From the NCBI GenBank assembly GCA_029259545.1, contig JAPHEE010000014.1, forward strand, positions 1 through 41,546: a stretch of 41,546 bases of DNA, written 5' to 3'. Origin of the DNA: Candidatus Alkanophaga volatiphilum (GTDB lineage Archaea > Halobacteriota > Syntropharchaeia > Alkanophagales > B39-G2). The notes under the pieces are model-generated. The model was not told the origin of the DNA. It was given only the letters and a program-made list of their open reading frames with translations, and ran no database searches. The position numbers were made by a program, and so were the translations under genes. The number at the start of each line of letters is the position of its first letter. The first letter of the stretch is position 1. This document shows positions 1 to 27,195 of this stretch, piece by piece.

Positions 1-97
1 TTATATGACGCAGCGGGGATCGAAGATGCGAGATGAAAAGTTTTATATAAAACCTTTACACACCCCTGAATCGGGCGCGGACAGAGGAGACGTGCCT
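1..97 (+). promoter_or_regulatory. CRISPR leader (partial) with TATA-like promoter
   Basis: This 97-base stretch before the first repeat contains no repeat copy. It holds an A/T-rich box, TTTATATA at about 42-49, roughly 50 bases upstream of repeat 1, which is a suitable place for an archaeal TATA box driving pre-crRNA transcription to the right. The best-conserved repeats lie on this side and the degenerate ones at the far end, so this is the leader end. The leader probably continues beyond the window. Confidence 0.6.
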
Positions 98-3000
98 GAA
101 AGAAATCAGACCAAGGTGGGATTGAAACAAAACTGCGACCGCCCGGACCTTCTTGGACGGACGCGAAAGAAATCAGACCAAGGTGGGATTGAAACGTGGC
201 TGCTCTACGAAAGACTCTCCGTCGTGGGCGAGGAGGAAAGAAATCAGACCAAGGTGGGATTGAAACTGCGGCATCACTCCTCCCAGAAGCGTATGCACTC
301 CGTGGAAAGAAATCAGACCAAGGTGGGATTGAAACTGATCAAAATTTCGGGCGGCGTTCCTAAGCGAACCTGCGTCGAAAGAAATCAGACCAAGGTGGGA
401 TTGAAACAGCGCCCGGATGATCTTGATCGGGACATCTACTTCGAGAAAGAAATCAGACCAAGGTGGGATTGAAACCCGACGAGGATTACAGAGTGGTACT
501 GCCCGAAGTGCGAAAGAAATCAGACCAAGGTGGGATTGAAACCACTAACGCAAATATACAAGCTAAGACGAATAACACGAAAGAAATCAGACCAAGGTGG
601 GATTGAAACGAGGAGAGCGTGATGCTCATGGCAAACTTTTACAGGAAAGAAATCAGACCAAGGTGGGATTGAAACCCGCGATATGCAGCGCATGCATTGC
701 AAGAACAGTCGTAGAAAGAAATCAGACCAAGGTGGGATTGAAACCGGAGCTCGACGACGAAGACCGTCGCCATCAAGTTCGAAAGAAATCAGACCAAGGT
801 GGGATTGAAACCACGCTGTCGTCATCTCCAACATTCCCAGTTGCCGCAAAGAAATCAGACCAAGGTGGGATTGAAACCAGCTCCGCCTCGTCCTGCCAAG
901 TGTGGTAGTGGTCGAAAGAAATCAGACCAAGGTGGGATTGAAACCGTCACCTCAAGCTCCCGTATCAACACGTCTAAAAGAAAGAAATCAGACCAAGGTG
1001 GGATTGAAACATCTTGTCAGGATGATGAGGGTGAGCGTGTCTGATCTGAAAGAAATCAGACCAAGGTGGGATTGAAACCTCTTTATCCTATGATACGCCC
1101 TCCTCTCCTGCCTGCGAAAGAAATCAGACCAAGGTGGGATTGAAACACGCAGTACTTCTCGTAGTGCCGCATGCTGACTTCGGAAAGAAATCAGACCAAG
1201 GTGGGATTGAAACCGACTTCGAGGTTGCGAGCGAGGAGACCGCCGAGGAGGGAAAGAAATCAGACCAAGGTGGGATTGAAACCGCCGAGCAGGCGGCGGC
1301 ACACCCCGTGCATCGTCGGAAAGAAATCAGACCAAGGTGGGATTGAAACGCGGCGGCAGACGGAGAGCGTCGCCGGCGTTGCGAGGCGGGAAAGAAATCA
1401 GACCAAGGTGGGATTGAAACCGGGACAACGGTGATCACCATGAAATGGTTTGGCTCGAAAGAAATCAGACCAAGGTGGGATTGAAACCTCGTAAGTCGGG
1501 TACTCCACTCTGATGATCTCATCCGAAAGAAATCAGACCAAGGTGGGATTGAAACAGCTGAAGCCGGAAGAGCGCCAGCCTCGCCAGAAGAAGAAAGAAA
1601 TCAGACCAAGGTGGGATTGAAACATTTAAATACGAACCTACAACAAACGTCATAGGAGGTGAAAGAAATCAGACCAAGGTGGGATTGAAACTGTTTTACA
1701 CAGATTGGACTAACGACGACGACTGGAAAGAAATCAGACCAAGGTGGGATTGAAACTAAAGCTTGCGCTCTAGTCCTCTCCATCCTTTACCTGAAAGAAA
1801 TCAGACCAAGGTGGGATTGAAACCAGTGAGCTACAAAAAAATAAGCTAAAAAATTGAAAAGAAAGAAATCAGACCAAGGTGGGATTGAAACGACGGCGTG
1901 CACGTCTGCATTTTCTGCGGCACGTTCGGAAAGAAATCAGACCAAGGTGGGATTGAAACTGCGGGGAGGATTAGCAATTTTTCTTTCAACACCGGAAAGA
2001 AATCAGACCAAGGTGGGATTGAAACGTGATCTTGTCGGCGATGAGTACAAAATATCGATTGGAAAGAAATCAGACCAAGGTGGGATTGAAACCGTGACCG
2101 AGGCGGCGGACGCACTCACGGCACACCGGCAGAAAGAAATCAGACCAAGGTGGGATTGAAACTGTTTCTCCTATAATGGCTATCAATGCGTTTTTGTGAA
2201 AGAAATCAGACCAAGGTGGGATTGAAACTTTGACTTGATGCAAGGGGGGCGCAAAATTGGGACAGAAAGAAATCAGACCAAGGTGGGATTGAAACTGTCC
2301 ATCCTTCCAGCCCCCACTAAAACCATCTCCGTTTGAAAGAAATCAGACCAAGGTGGGATTGAAACATGATTTCAATGTCTTTGATGCGTTCGAAATGGGA
2401 AAAGAAAGAAATCAGACCAAGGTGGGATTGAAACAAGAACTTGGCGACGCCCGTCCTGTTGCGAACTCTGAGAAAGAAATCAGACCAAGGTGGGATTGAA
2501 ACCATACTCTTCGCCGCTAGCGATAAGTTGTTGTTGCAGAAAGAAATCAGACCAAGGTGGGATTGAAACTTGCGTCGCTCGTCGCAAGACATGGCGGCAA
2601 AACGTCGAAAGAAATCAGACCAAGGTGGGATTGAAACGTCGGTGTCAATGCGTTTCATGACCTCCCGAAACTGGAAAGAAATCAGACCAAGGTGGGATTG
2701 AAACACTACGAGGAATTCCTGATTCCGGTCAAGGCTTCGAGGAAAGAAATCAGACCAAGGTGGGATTGAAACCAAGAATCTCGCCGAATAAAAGCGAAAG
2801 AACGTCGGCGGAAAGAAATCAGACCAAGGTGGGATTGAAACCTCCGCAAAGGCGTCTGCGAGGCTTTCCGCCCGCTTAGGAAAGAAATCAGACCAAGGTG
2901 GGATTGAAACCTTTTTTCGCTGTATGCATTATGCATACACCCAGAAAAGAAAGAAATCAGACCAAGGTGGGATTGAAACAGGAGGTGGCGAGCCACGAGA

Positions 3001-6000
3001 GAGGAGAAAGAGCCGAGAAAGAAATCAGACCAAGGTGGGATTGAAACAGATCTTGCAGGATTCCTGCAAGATTTTTTTCCTTTTGAAAGAAATCAGACCA
3101 AGGTGGGATTGAAACCGGTTGCTATTTGAAAAAAACTTTCAGACTGCGAGAAAGAAATCAGACCAAGGTGGGATTGAAACTTTGAGTTATAAAGCTTTTG
3201 GTTTCGCTGCGAGTCGAGAAAGAAATCAGACCAAGGTGGGATTGAAACTCGAAGAAGTTCACATACAACGAGTCCAAGTTCGTCGTTTCAGAAAGAAATC
3301 AGACCAAGGTGGGATTGAAACCGTGACGCTCTCAGAGACGTTACGAAGAAGTTGCGGGAAAGAAATCAGACCAAGGTGGGATTGAAACCGCTACTTCGAG
3401 CTCTCGATGATGCTCGAAGAGAAGGAAAGAAATCAGACCAAGGTGGGATTGAAACACGATCACGTAAGCTCCGCAACCCCGCACGATGCTGAAAGAAATC
3501 AGACCAAGGTGGGATTGAAACGAAACGGGTACGCCTCCCCTCCTGCACCTTCCGCCTGAAAGAAATCAGACCAAGGTGGGATTGAAACTGATGTTGCACT
3601 CCGCCTCGCCCACGACGATTTTGCCGAAAGAAATCAGACCAAGGTGGGATTGAAACGCTAATTCCATCCTCTCGTCCAACAGCTCGAAGAAGGGAAAGAA
3701 ATCAGACCAAGGTGGGATTGAAACGTCATCATAGGCGGCGTGCCGCAAGACCGCACTTACGGAAAGAAATCAGACCAAGGTGGGATTGAAACTGGTCTCG
3801 CCCGCACTGATGGTAAGCGATGCGGTAAGAAAGAAATCAGACCAAGGTGGGATTGAAACTATCATCGATGATTAGCTCCAGCTTACCAGTTTCGAGAAAG
3901 AAATCAGACCAAGGTGGGATTGAAACTGCTTTGCAACTTCGGCATGTTGATGGGAAGCTTCTGAAAGAAATCAGACCAAGGTGGGATTGAAACAGAGCCA
4001 TCAGGCGGGCTTGTGGCTCTTACATAGTAAGGAAAGAAATCAGACCAAGGTGGGATTGAAACGAAAGTTGGTGATAAGATAATCTCGAAGACAAACAAGA
4101 AAGAAATCAGACCAAGGTGGGATTGAAACGACGCCTGCGAGGTACGCATCAGGGCTGATGTTCGAAAGAAATCAGACCAAGGTGGGATTGAAACCACGAG
4201 TGATGACCGATGCGGTGGCATGGAAGTAGAGAAAGAAATCAGACCAAGGTGGGATTGAAACGCGTTGACATCTTCGACTATGATACTGACTTCTGTAGAA
4301 AGAAATCAGACCAAGGTGGGATTGAAACCTGTATAACGCCTCTACGAAATCTAACTGAACCCTGAAAGAAATCAAGGCACGAGTAATACGGTCTATCATC
4401 CGCACCGCCTACGAAATCTAACTGAACCCTGAAAGAAATCAGACCAAGGTGGGATTGAAACCGTAAAGGTGATCGCATGCCCGTCTTAGCTATCATAGGG
4501 AAAGAAATCAGACCAAGGTGGGATTGAAACTTCGTCGGTGATTTTGAACTTCTCTTCTAGGAAGTCTGAAAGAAATCAGACCAAGGTGGGATTGAAACGC
4601 TTCAACCTCTACGTCAAAGAACGCCTCCCCGAGCGAAAGAAATCAGACCAAGGTGGGATTGAAACCGAAAAAGATCTATTTACGCATCAACAAAGACAGA
4701 ACAGAAAGAAATCAGACCAAGGTGGGATTGAAACGAGTACCAGCGGAGTATTCTATCAGCGGAGACGGAAGAAAGAAATCAGACCAAGGTGGGATTGAAA
4801 CGCGTCTCAAGAGAACTACCCAACACGAGCAGACTTGAGAAAGAAATCAGACCAAGGTGGGATTGAAACTGATGTATGACAATTCTGCTGCTGGGTGCTT
4901 CTTTCGCGAAAGAAATCAGACCAAGGTGGGATTGAAACTTCGGGATGTGAAGATTAAGCTAGGCATCAGTGATAGAAAGAAATCAGACCAAGGTGGGATT
5001 GAAACATGTGCGGTATGCACATGATCATGTTCTCCTTAAGAAAGAAATCAGACCAAGGTGGGATTGAAACTCTCTCTCTGCCTTGAGTCTCTCAATTGTT
5101 TGTTCTGGAAAGAAATCAGACCAAGGTGGGATTGAAACCTCTCATCATTATGGCTATCGTCATAGGTGGCTTCATCGAAAGAAATCAGACCAAGGTGGGA
5201 TTGAAACAAGACGGTGTGCAGGGTGCGGAAGGAGTTAGGGCTAACGGAAAGAAATCAGACCAAGGTGGGATTGAAACAAGAGAAAAATACCAACCCGACG
5301 AGGCAAGGTAGAGGCGGAAAGAAATCAGACCAAGGTGGGATTGAAACTCTTATCATACGTCTTAAAGCCGCATACTACGCATTGAAAGAAATCAGACCAA
5401 GGTGGGATTGAAACAGGGACGGCACAACTTACGTCGAACACTCGTTAAAGAAAGAAATCAGACCAAGGTGGGATTGAAACAAATTTGGGACTTGGAAGCT
5501 GAGGAAAGAGCTTGGAAAAGAAAGAAATCAGACCAAGGTGGGATTGAAACAAGAGAGTTAGCTTATTGCAAGAAAGCCACATGCCCAGAAAGAAATCAGA
5601 CCAAGGTGGGATTGAAACAGAGAGGCTGCGGCTTGCCGTACTTGAGTATTCTTGGAAAGAAATCAGACCAAGGTGGGATTGAAACTGTGAGCCGTGAATT
5701 ATAACGGTTCTACATCTATATAGAAAGAAATCAGACCAAGGTGGGATTGAAACTAAAACAGGCGTACGAGGAGAAACGTGAGGAATTGACGCAGGAAAGA
5801 AATCAGACCAAGGTGGGATTGAAACGAGTGGGACGCACGACAGTAACGTAACGAGGCTTTGAGAAAGAAATCAGACCAAGGTGGGATTGAAACTTCAGGC
5901 GGCGGTTCGGCTGGCACAGGGATTACAACTGAAAGAAATCAGACCAAGGTGGGATTGAAACGAGCTTGAGGCGGAGGAGCTGATCAAAGAAGCTTTAGAA

Positions 6001-8548
6001 AGAAATCAGACCAAGGTGGGATTGAAACATCACCCGCCCCGAATTCCTTAAGCGTTACGCAGAGGAAAGAAATCAGACCAAGGTGGGATTGAAACTGAAG
6101 TAGCAACGGCGCTATGGGAGTTGTTCAAGCTTTACAAGAAAGAAATCAGACCAAGGTGGGATTGAAACTGCCTCCCACGACGTTGCCGTTCTCGTCGTAG
6201 CACCTGAAAGAAATCAGACCAAGGTGGGATTGAAACTCAATCTTCCTCACGGCTCCCCTTTCCACAAGCTCTTTAGCGAAAGAAATCAGACCAAGGTGGG
6301 ATTGAAACCATAACCGCTAAGCTCGAAGCTCTAAGACGCTACAAGAAAGAAATCAGACCAAGGTGGGATTGAAACCCGATACGAACAGCACCGCAAACTT
6401 TAGCTTAACTCCCCGAAAGAAATCAGACCAAGGTGGGATTGAAACTGTTGAAGAACCGCACCTCTGTTGCGGCGGAATACTCCTGAAAGAAATCAGACCA
6501 AGGTGGGATTGAAACGTGCGTAGATCGCAATTACGGCGTCGTCGCCGCTCCGAAAGAAATCAGACCAAGGTGGGATTGAAACCGAACGTGAGTTTCCTCG
6601 AGCGCTCTGGTGGACGCGAAAGAAATCAGACCAAGGTGGGATTGAAACAATTGTGGATACTCACGAAGAGAATTAGCTTACTGCGAAAGAAATCAGACCA
6701 AGGTGGGATTGAAACATAGCGCCGTTGCCACCTCATGGATTTGGTCATAAAGAAAGAAATCAGACCAAGGTGGGATTGAAACCATACCTCGCAGATCCAA
6801 CCGTATCCCCGATACGGGAAAGAAATCAGACCAAGGTGGGATTGAAATCTTGATGGTGTCGAGTGCTGGGAGCATGACCGATATGCGAAAGAAATCAGAC
6901 CAAGGTGGGATTGAAATATGCATCGTGCTGCCCATATCAACAGGTTCATAGCGGGAAAGAAATCAGACCAAGGTGGGATTGAAAGGCTTGCGAGGTGCCG
7001 TCCTCTTTGCGGCAGGCGTCGAAAGAAATCAGACCAAGGTGGGATTGAAAGCGTAGAAGACGGGCGTCGTGTCCAGCGGCTTCTCTTCCGAAAGAAATCA
7101 GACCAAGGTGGGATTGAAAGTGTTGTCAAACTCCCGATCCACCTCTACGATGTATTGAAAGAAATCAGACCAAGGTGGGATTGAAAGCGAGACCGCCTTC
7201 ACCGCCTCCCACCAACCTCCAAGAAAGAAATCAGACCAAGGTGGGATTGAAAGGCTTACCGATGTTGAAGTTTCATGGGACGAATGCAGAAAGAAATCAG
7301 ACCAAGGTGGGATTGAAAGGTTTGGAAATCCCGGAAGGTGCGAGCGTTTCAGCCAAGAAGAAATCAGACCAAGGTGGGATTGAAAGGCAGGAGGAACAAA
7401 GGATTTTCGAGCGCCAGAGGGCGAAGAAATCAGACCAAGGTGGGATTGAAAGTTCGGCTGTGCGTGGCAGGACGCCGGTCCCTACGTCTTTCCGGAGGAA
7501 GAAATCAGACCAAGGTGGGATTGAAAGTATAAAAGCCGTCGCAGCTCTTCGAGAAACCGCTTCCGTGAAGAAATCAGACCAAGGTGGGATTGAAAGAACT
7601 GAAGCATTGAGCGACGGCGACGCTGTGTTTGAAGAAGAAATCAGACCAAGGTGGGATTGAAAGTATTTCCTTGTCCATCGTTGCTAGCTCTTCTTTTATC
7701 GTGAAGAAATCAGACCAAGGTGGGATTGAAAGAGCCGCAATATCGTCAGGACTCCAAAAGCACATCTCGAGAAGAAATCAGACCAAGGTGGGATTGAAAG
7801 GGGACGAGGGTGGAGGAGGTGAGTGAGGGCGCTAAAGGGAAGAAATCAGACCAAGGTGGGATTGAAAGATGTGGAAGGGTCATAGTCCCTCCATCCTAAC
7901 ATGCGGATGAAGAAATCAGACCAAGGTGGGATTGAAAGAAATACTCGATGAAACGATTGCAAGGCTGAAAGCGGAAGAAATCAGACCAAGGTGGGATTGA
8001 AAGAAGAGATGGGATCGCCGATGAGGAGATCAAAGAGCATCTTGAAGAAATCAGACCAAGGTGGGATTGAAAGCTGAAACCCGCCCTGCGGCTTCTGTGC
8101 TGTGAGCAAGAAGAAATCAGACCAAGGTGGGATTGAAAGTTCTAGAGTGGGTGCTCTCTAGGAAGGACGCCTTGCAAGAGAAGAAATCAGACCAAGGTGG
8201 GATTGAAAGCACTCGCTCTTCTTGCAACTTCTTTTTGTCGAGCTTCAGAAGAAATCAGACCAAGGTGGGATTGAAAGGCAGCAGAATTGTCCTACATCAA
8301 GGTAGCAGAATTCAGAAGAAATCAGACCAAGGTGGGATTGAAAGAGTACATGAGCAGCCTTGCGTCCTCCGGGCGTAGCTCCCGAGAAGAAATCAGACCA
8401 AGGTGGGATTGAAAGGCTCCACATCCAGAACGTTGAACGTCGCAGCATGACCGAAGAAATCAGACCAAGGTGGGATTGAAAGGAGAACTTAGACATCGCT
8501 CTTTCGGCTCTTAGAGATGAAGAAATCAGACCAAGGTGGGATTGAGAG
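98..8548 (+). CRISPR. CRISPR array, about 124 repeats
   Basis: The array has about 124 intact repeats by manual count. Each is 30-31 nt, starting GAAAGAAATCAGACC and ending GGTGGGATTGAAAC, and they are separated by unique spacers of about 34-44 nt. The ending ATTGAAAC/G matches the 8-nt crRNA 5' handle known from type I and III archaeal systems, so transcription runs left to right. Repeat variants are layered: ATTGAAAC up to 6782, ATTGAAAT in two repeats (6818-6917), ATTGAAAG from 6955, and from 7357 a 30-nt form that has lost one A near its start (GAAGAAATC). The final repeat (8519-8548) is further mutated, ending ATTGAGAG, and marks the old end. No cas genes lie in the window. ORFs listed across the array are repeat translations and not genes. 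Confidence 0.98.
4329..4430 (+). repeat. Aberrant CRISPR unit with off-register duplication
   Basis: The stretch between two intact repeats is 102 nt instead of about 36. A 33-nt sequence covering the 3' part of the spacer and the first 11 bases of a repeat occurs twice, at 4342-4374 and 4409-4441, exactly 67 nt apart, which is one repeat-plus-spacer length. Between the copies lie 34 nt of unrelated sequence, the size of a spacer. The repeat fragment at 4364-4374 is only the first 11 bases of the normal repeat and lacks the ATTGAAAC handle. Confidence 0.9.
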
Positions 8549-25953: not shown

Positions 25954-27192
25954 TCACTGCTTTTCCCCCAAAAATTCCCTGATCCTTTCCACGATCTCCT
26001 CGAACGTCTTAGCAGCTTCGACGTTTTTAACAACGAAGGGGACGCCGTCATCCCCAGCTTCCACGATTCTCGGCTCGAAAGGTATGCTCCCAAGGAAGGG
26101 GACGCCGAGCTCCACCGCCGCCCTACGGCCGCCGCCGACCTTGAACGGGAAGAGGCGAGCGCCGCAGTTTGGGCAGACGAAACCACTCATATTTTCGATG
26201 ATGCCGATGACTGGCACGTTAAGCTGCGAGGCGAAGACCACGGCTTTCCTCGAGTCCAAGAGGGCGACGTCCTGCGGCGTCGTCACCACGACGGCGCCGT
26301 TGACCTTCGGAATGAGCTGCGCGACGCTCAGAGGTTCGTCGCCTGTGTTATGGACGACAAAGCCGTTGGCGATGAAGTTCCCGCCCTCCACCCGGAGGTC
26401 ATAGACCTCGCCGATGCCTGCGGCGCTAATACTGACGACCGTTTCGACGCTCAGCGGTTGCTGCCGGCTGGCGTGCATTATGGCGTCACCCATCTCGAAC
26501 ACCGGGAGGGCGTCTCCGGGCTTGATGTCTAAAAGCTTTTTCCAGAAGAAGCGCCCGTTTTCAGCGACAAGGATGGGATGGCTCGCTGTACCTTTAATGC
26601 GGTAATTCTCGGTCTTGAGCTCGAAAAGGGAAGTGACGCCCTGCGGAATCACTTCTAAAACTCTTCGCGTCACGATCCGCCTGCGACTGTCGAGGCAATA
26701 CACCATGGCGCCAGCTCTGGTTTCTGAGATGCGAAGCGGTCCGAATGGCGTGAGTATATGAGTGTCAACGGACAAGCAACCCGGCGGTAAGTCCACAATT
26801 AGATAATCAAGCTCGCCCCATCGGACGTCGCTGAGGAACTGCCTTATTGCTGTTGCTTTCAGCGGGCCTCGCCATATCACCGGGGAGTCCTTACTTGAAA
26901 GCAGGAAACCCAAGGACATGACCTTAACGCCATATTGCGATTCCACAGGGAGGATCTCGCCGCTTTCTACGGTCGGACGCTCGTCTTCAATTCCGAGCAT
27001 CTTCGGCACATTCGGACCATGCAGGTCAGCGTCGAGAAGCCCAACACGTAAACCCTTCCTCGCAAGCGATGCCGCAAGGTTGACGGCGACCGTTGTTTTC
27101 CCAACACCACCTTTCCCGCTTATCACTACAATTTTGTATTTTACCTTCTCCATCTTCTTCTCTATCCCTTTCCGCGCCTCTTCCATCCCCAT
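25954..27192 (-). CDS. Mrp/Nbp35-type Fe-S carrier ATPase with mini-intein
   Basis: This P-loop ATPase of the Mrp/Nbp35 family transfers iron-sulfur clusters to apoproteins. It has the deviant Walker A GKGGVGKTT (about residue 27), LLDADLHGPNVPKMLG, and a C-terminal CPNC (GFVCPNCGARLFPF) for the bridging cluster. The reading frame is interrupted by a 144-residue intein after DLPPG; the extein resumes at TGDEPLSVAQL. Without the intein the protein is about 268 residues, a normal size. Three start codons are close together (GTG 27195, ATG 27192, ATG 27186); I chose 27192. It lies next to the DUF134 regulator, a frequent partner. Confidence 0.93.
   Translation of the reverse strand: MGMEEARKGIEKKMEKVKYKIVVISGKGGVGKTTVAVNLAASLARKGLRVGLLDADLHGPNVPKMLGIEDERPTVESGEILPVESQYGVKVMSLGFLLSSKDSPVIWRGPLKATAIRQFLSDVRWGELDYLIVDLPPGCLSVDTHILTPFGPLRISETRAGAMVYCLDSRRRIVTRRVLEVIPQGVTSLFELKTENYRIKGTASHPILVAENGRFFWKKLLDIKPGDALPVFEMGDAIMHASRQQPLSVETVVSISAAGIGEVYDLRVEGGNFIANGFVVHNTGDEPLSVAQLIPKVNGAVVVTTPQDVALLDSRKAVVFASQLNVPVIGIIENMSGFVCPNCGARLFPFKVGGGRRAAVELGVPFLGSIPFEPRIVEAGDDGVPFVVKNVEAAKTFEEIVERIREFLGEKQ
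26347..26778 (-). other. Mini-intein in the Mrp ATPase
   Basis: The 144-residue insertion begins with Cys (CLSVDTHILT, block A). It contains the block B T-x-x-H in GTASHPILV and ends with VYDLRVEGGNFIANGFVVHN (blocks F and G), followed by extein Thr. Cys1, the block B His, the terminal His-Asn and a Thr at +1 are all present, so splicing should be active. There is no LAGLIDADG homing endonuclease region, which makes it a mini-intein. It sits in the conserved PPGTGD loop of the ATPase, a typical active-site insertion position. The penultimate His and terminal Asn are residues 282 and 283 of the precursor counted from the GTG. Confidence 0.93.
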
Positions 27193-27195
27193 CAC

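What the first reader, a model, noticed from the sequence alone, without database searches (positions are those of the whole stretch)
4329..4441. Fossil of an off-register spacer integration inside the CRISPR array
A 33-nt sequence spanning the end of one spacer and the first 11 bases of a repeat is duplicated exactly 67 nt apart (4342-4374 and 4409-4441), with 34 nt of unrelated DNA between. A repeat-length duplication around a spacer-length insert is what Cas1-Cas2 integration produces, but here the duplicated block is shifted about 20 nt upstream of the repeat boundary and sits deep in the array. The insert therefore has no proper handle and should be poorly processed.
Basis: partly seen in the sequence, partly recalled or inferred. 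Interest (0 to 1): 0.85.

Follow-up and report, generated by a model that had tools for sequence, protein, structure and literature searches.

The report
Misplaced spacer insertion in CRISPR array
In a heat-loving archaeon's long CRISPR memory bank, one stored virus-size fragment was apparently pasted in out of step, inside an older fragment that happens to look like the normal insertion site, leaving a rare natural record of the integrase making a sequence-guided mistake.

Summary
A 33-nt block (4342-4374) recurs identically at 4409-4441, 67 nt away, with 34 nt of unrelated DNA between. The block joins the last 22 nt of one spacer to the first 11 nt of the 31-nt repeat. Removing one copy plus the insert restores a normal 66-nt unit. 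It is the only off-register unit among 374 inter-repeat intervals in this genome's arrays.

The left breakpoint (ACGCCT|CTACGAAATC) imitates the real leader-repeat junction (GTGCCT|GAAAGAAATC). It is the best non-repeat match on the array's + strand (20 of 37 positions; next best 18). Non-CRISPR DNA matches as well at about 0.3-2 in 10,000 sites under most scoring windows. The likeliest event is full-site integration by Cas1-Cas2 at a chance look-alike of its target, duplicating 31-33 nt. Exact 127-nt contig overlaps suggest a k=127 assembly, so the 113-nt structure fits within one k-mer, arguing against misassembly.

Array position does not show that insertion occurred deep inside. The insert lacks a crRNA handle; the interrupted spacer keeps its own. 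The insert's source is unknown, and no Cas1 gene was found in this 88%-complete genome. It is a new variant of known ectopic/off-target integration.

The parts
1..97 (+). Leader, ending ...GGAGACGTGCCT before the first repeat
   Evidence: Shared base for base with the C51 allele and continuing on C25; the last 8 nt match the leaders of two other arrays as ACGYGCCT
98..8548 (+). CRISPR array, 124 repeats; 31-nt form GAAAGAAATCAGACCAAGGTGGGATTGAAAC, 30-nt form GAAGAAATC...GAAAG at the old end
4298..4328 (+). Intact repeat upstream of the odd unit; supplies the 5' handle of spacer A
4329..4363 (+). Spacer A (35 nt), the interrupted spacer, containing the leader-repeat-junction look-alike ACGCCT|CTACGAAATC
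4342..4374 (+). First copy of the duplicated block (33 nt maximum: 22 nt of spacer A plus 11 nt of repeat)
4364..4374 (+). Repeat fragment GAAAGAAATCA, first 11 nt of the repeat only
4375..4408 (+). Insert, 34 nt (35-36 nt if the true duplication is 32 or 31 nt)
4409..4441 (+). Second copy of the duplicated block, running into a complete repeat
4431..4461 (+). Intact repeat downstream of the odd unit

Best explanation
An ordinary-size prespacer was fully integrated by the Cas1-Cas2 integrase at the wrong place. Spacer A happens to contain GCCT followed four bases later by GAAATC, which is how the leader meets the 31-nt repeat (GCCT|GAAA GAAATC). [quoted passage not shown] bottom strand TCT|GATTTC). 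Gap repair then duplicated that stretch around a 34-36 nt insert. Shown: the duplication, the insert, restoration of a normal unit on removal, and the rank of the site as a junction look-alike. Inferred: that Cas1-Cas2 did it, that the insert is foreign, the exact second cut, the time of the event, and the functional outcome (insert without handle; spacer A still headed by a full repeat).
For: Exact 33-nt direct duplication flanking 34 unrelated nt, total 67 = one array unit. The left breakpoint matches the leader-repeat junction at 11 of 14 positions (-4 to +10) and 20 of 37 (-6 to +31); it is first of 8,344 + strand positions in the array with the insertion removed (next best 18 of 37), and in non-CRISPR host DNA such scores occur at 3.5e-5 and 1.1e-4 per site. 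GCCT ends the leaders of all three arrays with a visible leader. Site 1 has C at -2 and C at +1, and a 32-nt second site has C at -2 and G at +1, the intrinsic preference reported for Sulfolobus solfataricus Cas1-Cas2 (PMC5815122). Off-target integrations by S. thermophilus Cas1-Cas2 in vitro also resemble a leader-repeat junction (PMC6895254). Insert length falls within the observed 33-44 nt spacer range. The insert does not resemble other spacers or the replaced array sequence. Contig ends overlap by exactly 127 nt, implying k=127, longer than the 113-nt structure.
Against: No protospacer was found for the insert in phages, plasmids or IMG/VR; broad phage searches with the two array alleles also gave only weak, chance-level matches, so the absence says little. 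No Cas1 was found in this 88%-complete assembly, although a congener has one and this genome has cas genes at a contig edge. The scoring windows were chosen after the resemblance was seen; with the widest leader window (-10 to +31) the host-DNA rate rises to 8e-4. The middle of the repeat is not imitated.
Confidence: 0.85

Rival explanations
1. Two steps: the spacer A-repeat unit was tandemly duplicated by slippage, then 33 nt at the new junction (the rest of the repeat plus the first 13 nt of spacer A) were replaced by 34 unrelated nt through an error-prone or templated repair event.
For: Adjacent identical spacers occur twice elsewhere in this genome (C51 3711/3782; C33 segment L057 6972/7039), so tandem unit duplication happens here. 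Duplication by replication misalignment is a proposed mechanism (PMC8047081).
Against: Needs two events; the replaced stretch and the insert show no similarity (global score -8.0 against a shuffled mean of -7.2); nothing in it predicts a breakpoint at the best junction look-alike or an insert of spacer length.
Confidence: 0.08
2. Assembly or chimera artefact of a mixed population: the MAG holds two alleles of this array, and sequences of different strains were joined.
For: Two alleles are present: C14 and C51 share the leader and 127 nt near the old end but differ in between.
Against: Both odd junctions and the whole duplication (113 nt) fit in one 127-mer, and contig ends overlap by exactly 127 nt. 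The 11-nt repeat/insert junction and the insert/spacer junction have no homology on which an assembler would jump. The insert occurs nowhere else in the assembly.
Confidence: 0.05
3. Insertion by another mobile-element integrase or casposase that leaves a long target-site duplication.
For: Casposases are Cas1 homologues that integrate with target-site duplications and recognise leader-like sequences (literature titles and abstracts; own knowledge).
Against: A 34-nt insert is too short to be an element; duplication and insert are both of this array's own unit sizes; no casposon was looked for or seen.
Confidence: 0.02

Closest known systems
Ectopic (mid-array) spacer integration in type II-A systems of Streptococcus thermophilus and S. 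pyogenes (PMC5338259, PMC7999890; McGinn and Marraffini 2016 as cited there)
   Same: A new spacer away from the leader-repeat junction, thought to be guided by leader-like bases at the end of an existing spacer
   Different: There, as described, integration is at repeat boundaries within the array; here the cut lies inside a spacer, 22 nt off register, and leaves an 11-nt repeat fragment. Archaeal host
Off-target integration by purified Cas1-Cas2 at sites resembling a leader-repeat junction (S. thermophilus, PMC6895254; S. solfataricus, PMC5815122)
   Same: Site chosen by short similarity to the leader-repeat junction; C at -2 and C/G at +1 in the archaeal enzyme
   Different: Those are in vitro, and the S. 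thermophilus ones are described as likely half-site; this is a natural, full-site, inherited product
Non-canonical spacer integration in E. coli (Nivala et al. 2018; cited in PMC9456107 and PMC11788318, not read here)
   Same: Spacer integration outside the canonical site in vivo
   Different: Reported under Cas1-Cas2 overexpression in non-array genome sites and linked to IHF sites; here inside an array of an uncultured archaeon

Membership tests
Full-site Cas1-Cas2 integration product | Direct duplication of about repeat length around a spacer-length insert | tested here: met
   33 nt maximum around 34 nt minimum; repeat 31, spacers 33-44 nt
Full-site Cas1-Cas2 integration product | Site 1 resembles the leader-repeat junction | tested here: met
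   First of 8,344 + strand array positions; about 2e-4 per site or less in host DNA for most windows
Full-site Cas1-Cas2 integration product | Insert derives from a mobile element next to a PAM | tested here: inconclusive
   No match to the insert in any collection searched; no PAM known for this array
Full-site Cas1-Cas2 integration product | Cognate cas1/cas2 in the same cell | tested here: inconclusive
   No Cas1 in the 88%-complete MAG; the MAG has Cas6, a weak Csc3-like match and a Csa3-like protein near the start of C10; congener has type I-B-like Cas1. Cas2 was not searched for
Ectopic spacer integration as described in type II-A arrays | New spacer flanked by two complete repeats at an interior repeat | tested here: not met
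   The insert is preceded by an 11-nt repeat fragment and followed by 22 nt of spacer A
Ectopic spacer integration as described in type II-A arrays | Leader-anchoring-like bases upstream of the insertion site | tested here: met
   GCCT before the cut, as in three leaders of this genome
Functional repeat-spacer unit | Insert preceded by a full repeat that supplies the 8-nt 5' handle | tested here: not met
   Only GAAAGAAATCA precedes it; the repeat's 3' part with GGTGGGATTGAAAC is missing
Functional repeat-spacer unit | Processed crRNA present | not testable with these tools
   No RNA data

The most novel reading that the evidence does not exclude
In this archaeon, integrase targeting in vivo can be satisfied by about 14 nt across a leader-repeat-like junction (GCCT, then GAAATC at +5), without the leader or the middle of the repeat, and the second cut is set by distance (31-33 nt) rather than by a motif inside the repeat. 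Chance look-alikes inside spacers would then be predictable hot spots for off-register spacers.
Probability: 0.4. Interest if true: 0.6.

Novelty: new variant of a known kind. Interest (0 to 1): 0.48.

Why it matters
Rules for where Cas1-Cas2 integrates come mostly from mutated targets and in vitro assays in a few model systems. A natural, inherited, full-site mistake at a sequence look-alike is an independent in vivo data point on what the integrase recognises. Here it suggests that the bases flanking site 1 matter most, while the middle of the repeat, which acts as a molecular ruler in type I-B and I-E systems, was not needed to give a duplication of nearly normal length. It also shows how array units can be corrupted and how spacer order can mislead as a chronology. 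It is one case in one MAG, so it prompts a survey rather than settling the rule.

Tried and rejected
Source of the insert: exact 24-nt and 18-nt patterns and four translated frames (perfect peptide match required) against IMG/VR, blastn of the odd unit against phages and plasmids, and the own assembly: no significant match. Broad array searches against phages gave only chance-level hits, best E 0.7, and none in plasmids, so no PAM could be derived. A protospacer shared by both array alleles and a conserved coding protospacer were scanned in IMG/VR without a hit. Insert as a copy of another spacer: best local score 19, reached by 74 of 100 shuffles. Insert as a mutated form of the missing repeat-plus-spacer stretch: no similarity. 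Search for a second off-register unit in the other array segments: none. Nivala 2018, Grainy 2019 and Wang 2016 are not in the library.

Full report
Setting. The window is contig 14 of an 89-contig, 1.85-Mb assembly estimated 88% complete. Its only same-genus relative held carries the same repeat core, and that relative's contigs match the named record 'Candidatus Alkanophagales archaeon B39_G2', so the host is most likely an uncultured, heat-loving Alkanophagales archaeon. Genes right of the array encode a CO dehydrogenase/acetyl-CoA synthase and other metabolic and ribosomal proteins. The array runs from 98 to about 8548 with 124 repeats and a leader on the left.

Observation. The 33-nt sequence at 4342-4374 recurs exactly at 4409-4441. 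Read as array units: intact repeat (4298-4328), spacer A of 35 nt (4329-4363), the first 11 nt of the repeat (4364-4374), 34 nt found nowhere else in the window, the last 22 nt of spacer A (4409-4430), intact repeat (4431-4461). Deleting one copy and the insert (67 nt) leaves a normal 66-nt unit. In 374 inter-repeat intervals from five array segments no other contains a repeat fragment of 9 nt or more, and the other spacers are 33-44 nt.

Not an assembly accident. Contig 51 is a second allele of the same array: it shares exactly 127 nt of leader and first repeat with the window, and its last 127 nt equal window 6685-6811. Contig 25 overlaps both by 127 nt. Exact 127-nt overlaps indicate a k=127 assembly graph. 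The odd structure is 113 nt, so one k-mer holds all of it. This is inference about the assembler; multi-k assemblers can carry sequence forward from shorter k, and reads were not available.

Mechanism. Full Cas1-Cas2 integration leaves a duplication of the target between the two attack points around the new spacer. Here the first attack point would be 4341|4342. Aligned without gaps to the leader-repeat junction, that point matches at -4 to -1 (GCCT), +3, +5 to +10 (GAAATC), +13, +14, +17, +23, +24 and +27 to +30. In the array with the insertion removed it ranks first of 8,344 + strand positions outside true repeat starts, with 20 of 37 matches against 18 for the next; over -4 to +10 it shares the top score of 11 of 14 with one other position. 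In 113,202 sites of non-CRISPR DNA from the same genome, scores as high occur at rates of 2.7e-5 to 1.9e-4 for five windows and 8e-4 for the widest leader window. These windows were chosen after I saw the resemblance, so the rates are somewhat optimistic; the rank in the array is the fairer number. The contig 51 allele does contain non-canonical sites scoring 20 to 23 of 37, so a look-alike alone does not force an event.

Second cut. The longest possible duplication is 33 nt, but chance identity of the insert's end with the target could hide a shorter one. For duplications of 28 to 33 nt, only 32 nt puts C at -2 and G at +1 on the attacked strand. S. solfataricus Cas1-Cas2 prefers C at -2 and C or G at +1 (PMC5815122), and site 1 here also has C at -2 and C at +1. 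I therefore favour 32 nt with a 35-nt insert; 31 or 33 remain possible. The middle of the repeat is hardly imitated, so the near-normal length is more easily explained by the reach of the complex than by a repeat motif. This is inference from one case; published work reports ruler elements inside repeats of type I-B, I-E and II-A systems (PMC6895254).

When, and with what effect. New spacers enter at the leader, so the 62 spacers left of the odd unit may all be younger. The event could have happened when spacer A was close to the leader; its present depth is no evidence of mid-array insertion. Spacer A still follows a full repeat and so should keep its ATTGAAAC handle. The insert has no such handle and no processing site directly upstream, and should be carried silently in the tail of the spacer A transcript. 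This is read from sequence and general knowledge of Cas6 processing, not tested.

Enzyme. No Cas1 was found in the assembly. Cas6 lies on contig 10 beside a protein with a weak, below-cutoff match to type I-D Csc3 and a Csa3-like regulator, all in the first 4.1 kb of that contig. The rest of the cas locus may therefore be missing from the assembly. The congener carries an intact Cas1 best matching the type I-B model, beside type III-B genes. Which Cas1 serves this array is not known.

Literature. Spacer insertion inside arrays is known as ectopic integration (PMC5338259, PMC7999890, PMC8047081), and off-target products that resemble a leader-repeat junction are known in vitro (PMC6895254). Within a limited search I found no description of a natural off-register, full-site insertion inside a spacer. 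That search covered only open-licence papers, and three relevant papers could not be read.

Verdict.

Noticed in passing
L041 (contig 51) 1-7928 against window 1-127 and 6685-6811: Second allele of the same array: same leader and near-tail spacers, different spacers between, so the MAG mixes at least two strains.
   Followed up: partly
window 6816-8548: Repeat drift along the array: old-end repeats are 30 nt (GAAGAAATC...GAAAG), then 31-nt forms ending AAAG and AAAT, then the 31-nt form ending AAAC. In contig 51 the two leader-proximal repeats end AAAT.
   Followed up: partly
window 2229 and L041 3711, 3782: Nearly the same protospacer stored on opposite strands in the two alleles, and tandemly duplicated in contig 51. 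No virus match found.
   Followed up: partly
window 5278 and L041 3919: Two spacers on opposite strands encode nearly the same peptide (RKIPTRR[GS]KVEA), apparently from variants of one viral gene. No IMG/VR match to a back-translated pattern.
   Followed up: partly
window 25954-27195: NUBPL/Mrp-type ParA ATPase that appears to be interrupted by an intein (Pfam Intein_splicing, residues 174-283).
   Followed up: no
L073 129-4105 (contig 10): Partial cas locus near the contig start: weak Csc3-like protein, Csa3-like regulator and Cas6; no Cas1 anywhere in the assembly.
   Followed up: partly
L071 5821-6748 (G001 contig 42): Cas1 in the congener split over two reading frames beside type III-A csm genes, possibly a pseudogene or sequencing error.
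   Followed up: no
L054 1-480: Congener contig with repeats in opposite orientations about 60 nt apart and mirrored flanks, probably a chimeric contig.
   Followed up: no
L055 300-620: An Archaeoglobales MAG has an array with a closely related repeat (TTCAAATCAGACCAAGATGGGATTGAAAG).
   Followed up: no
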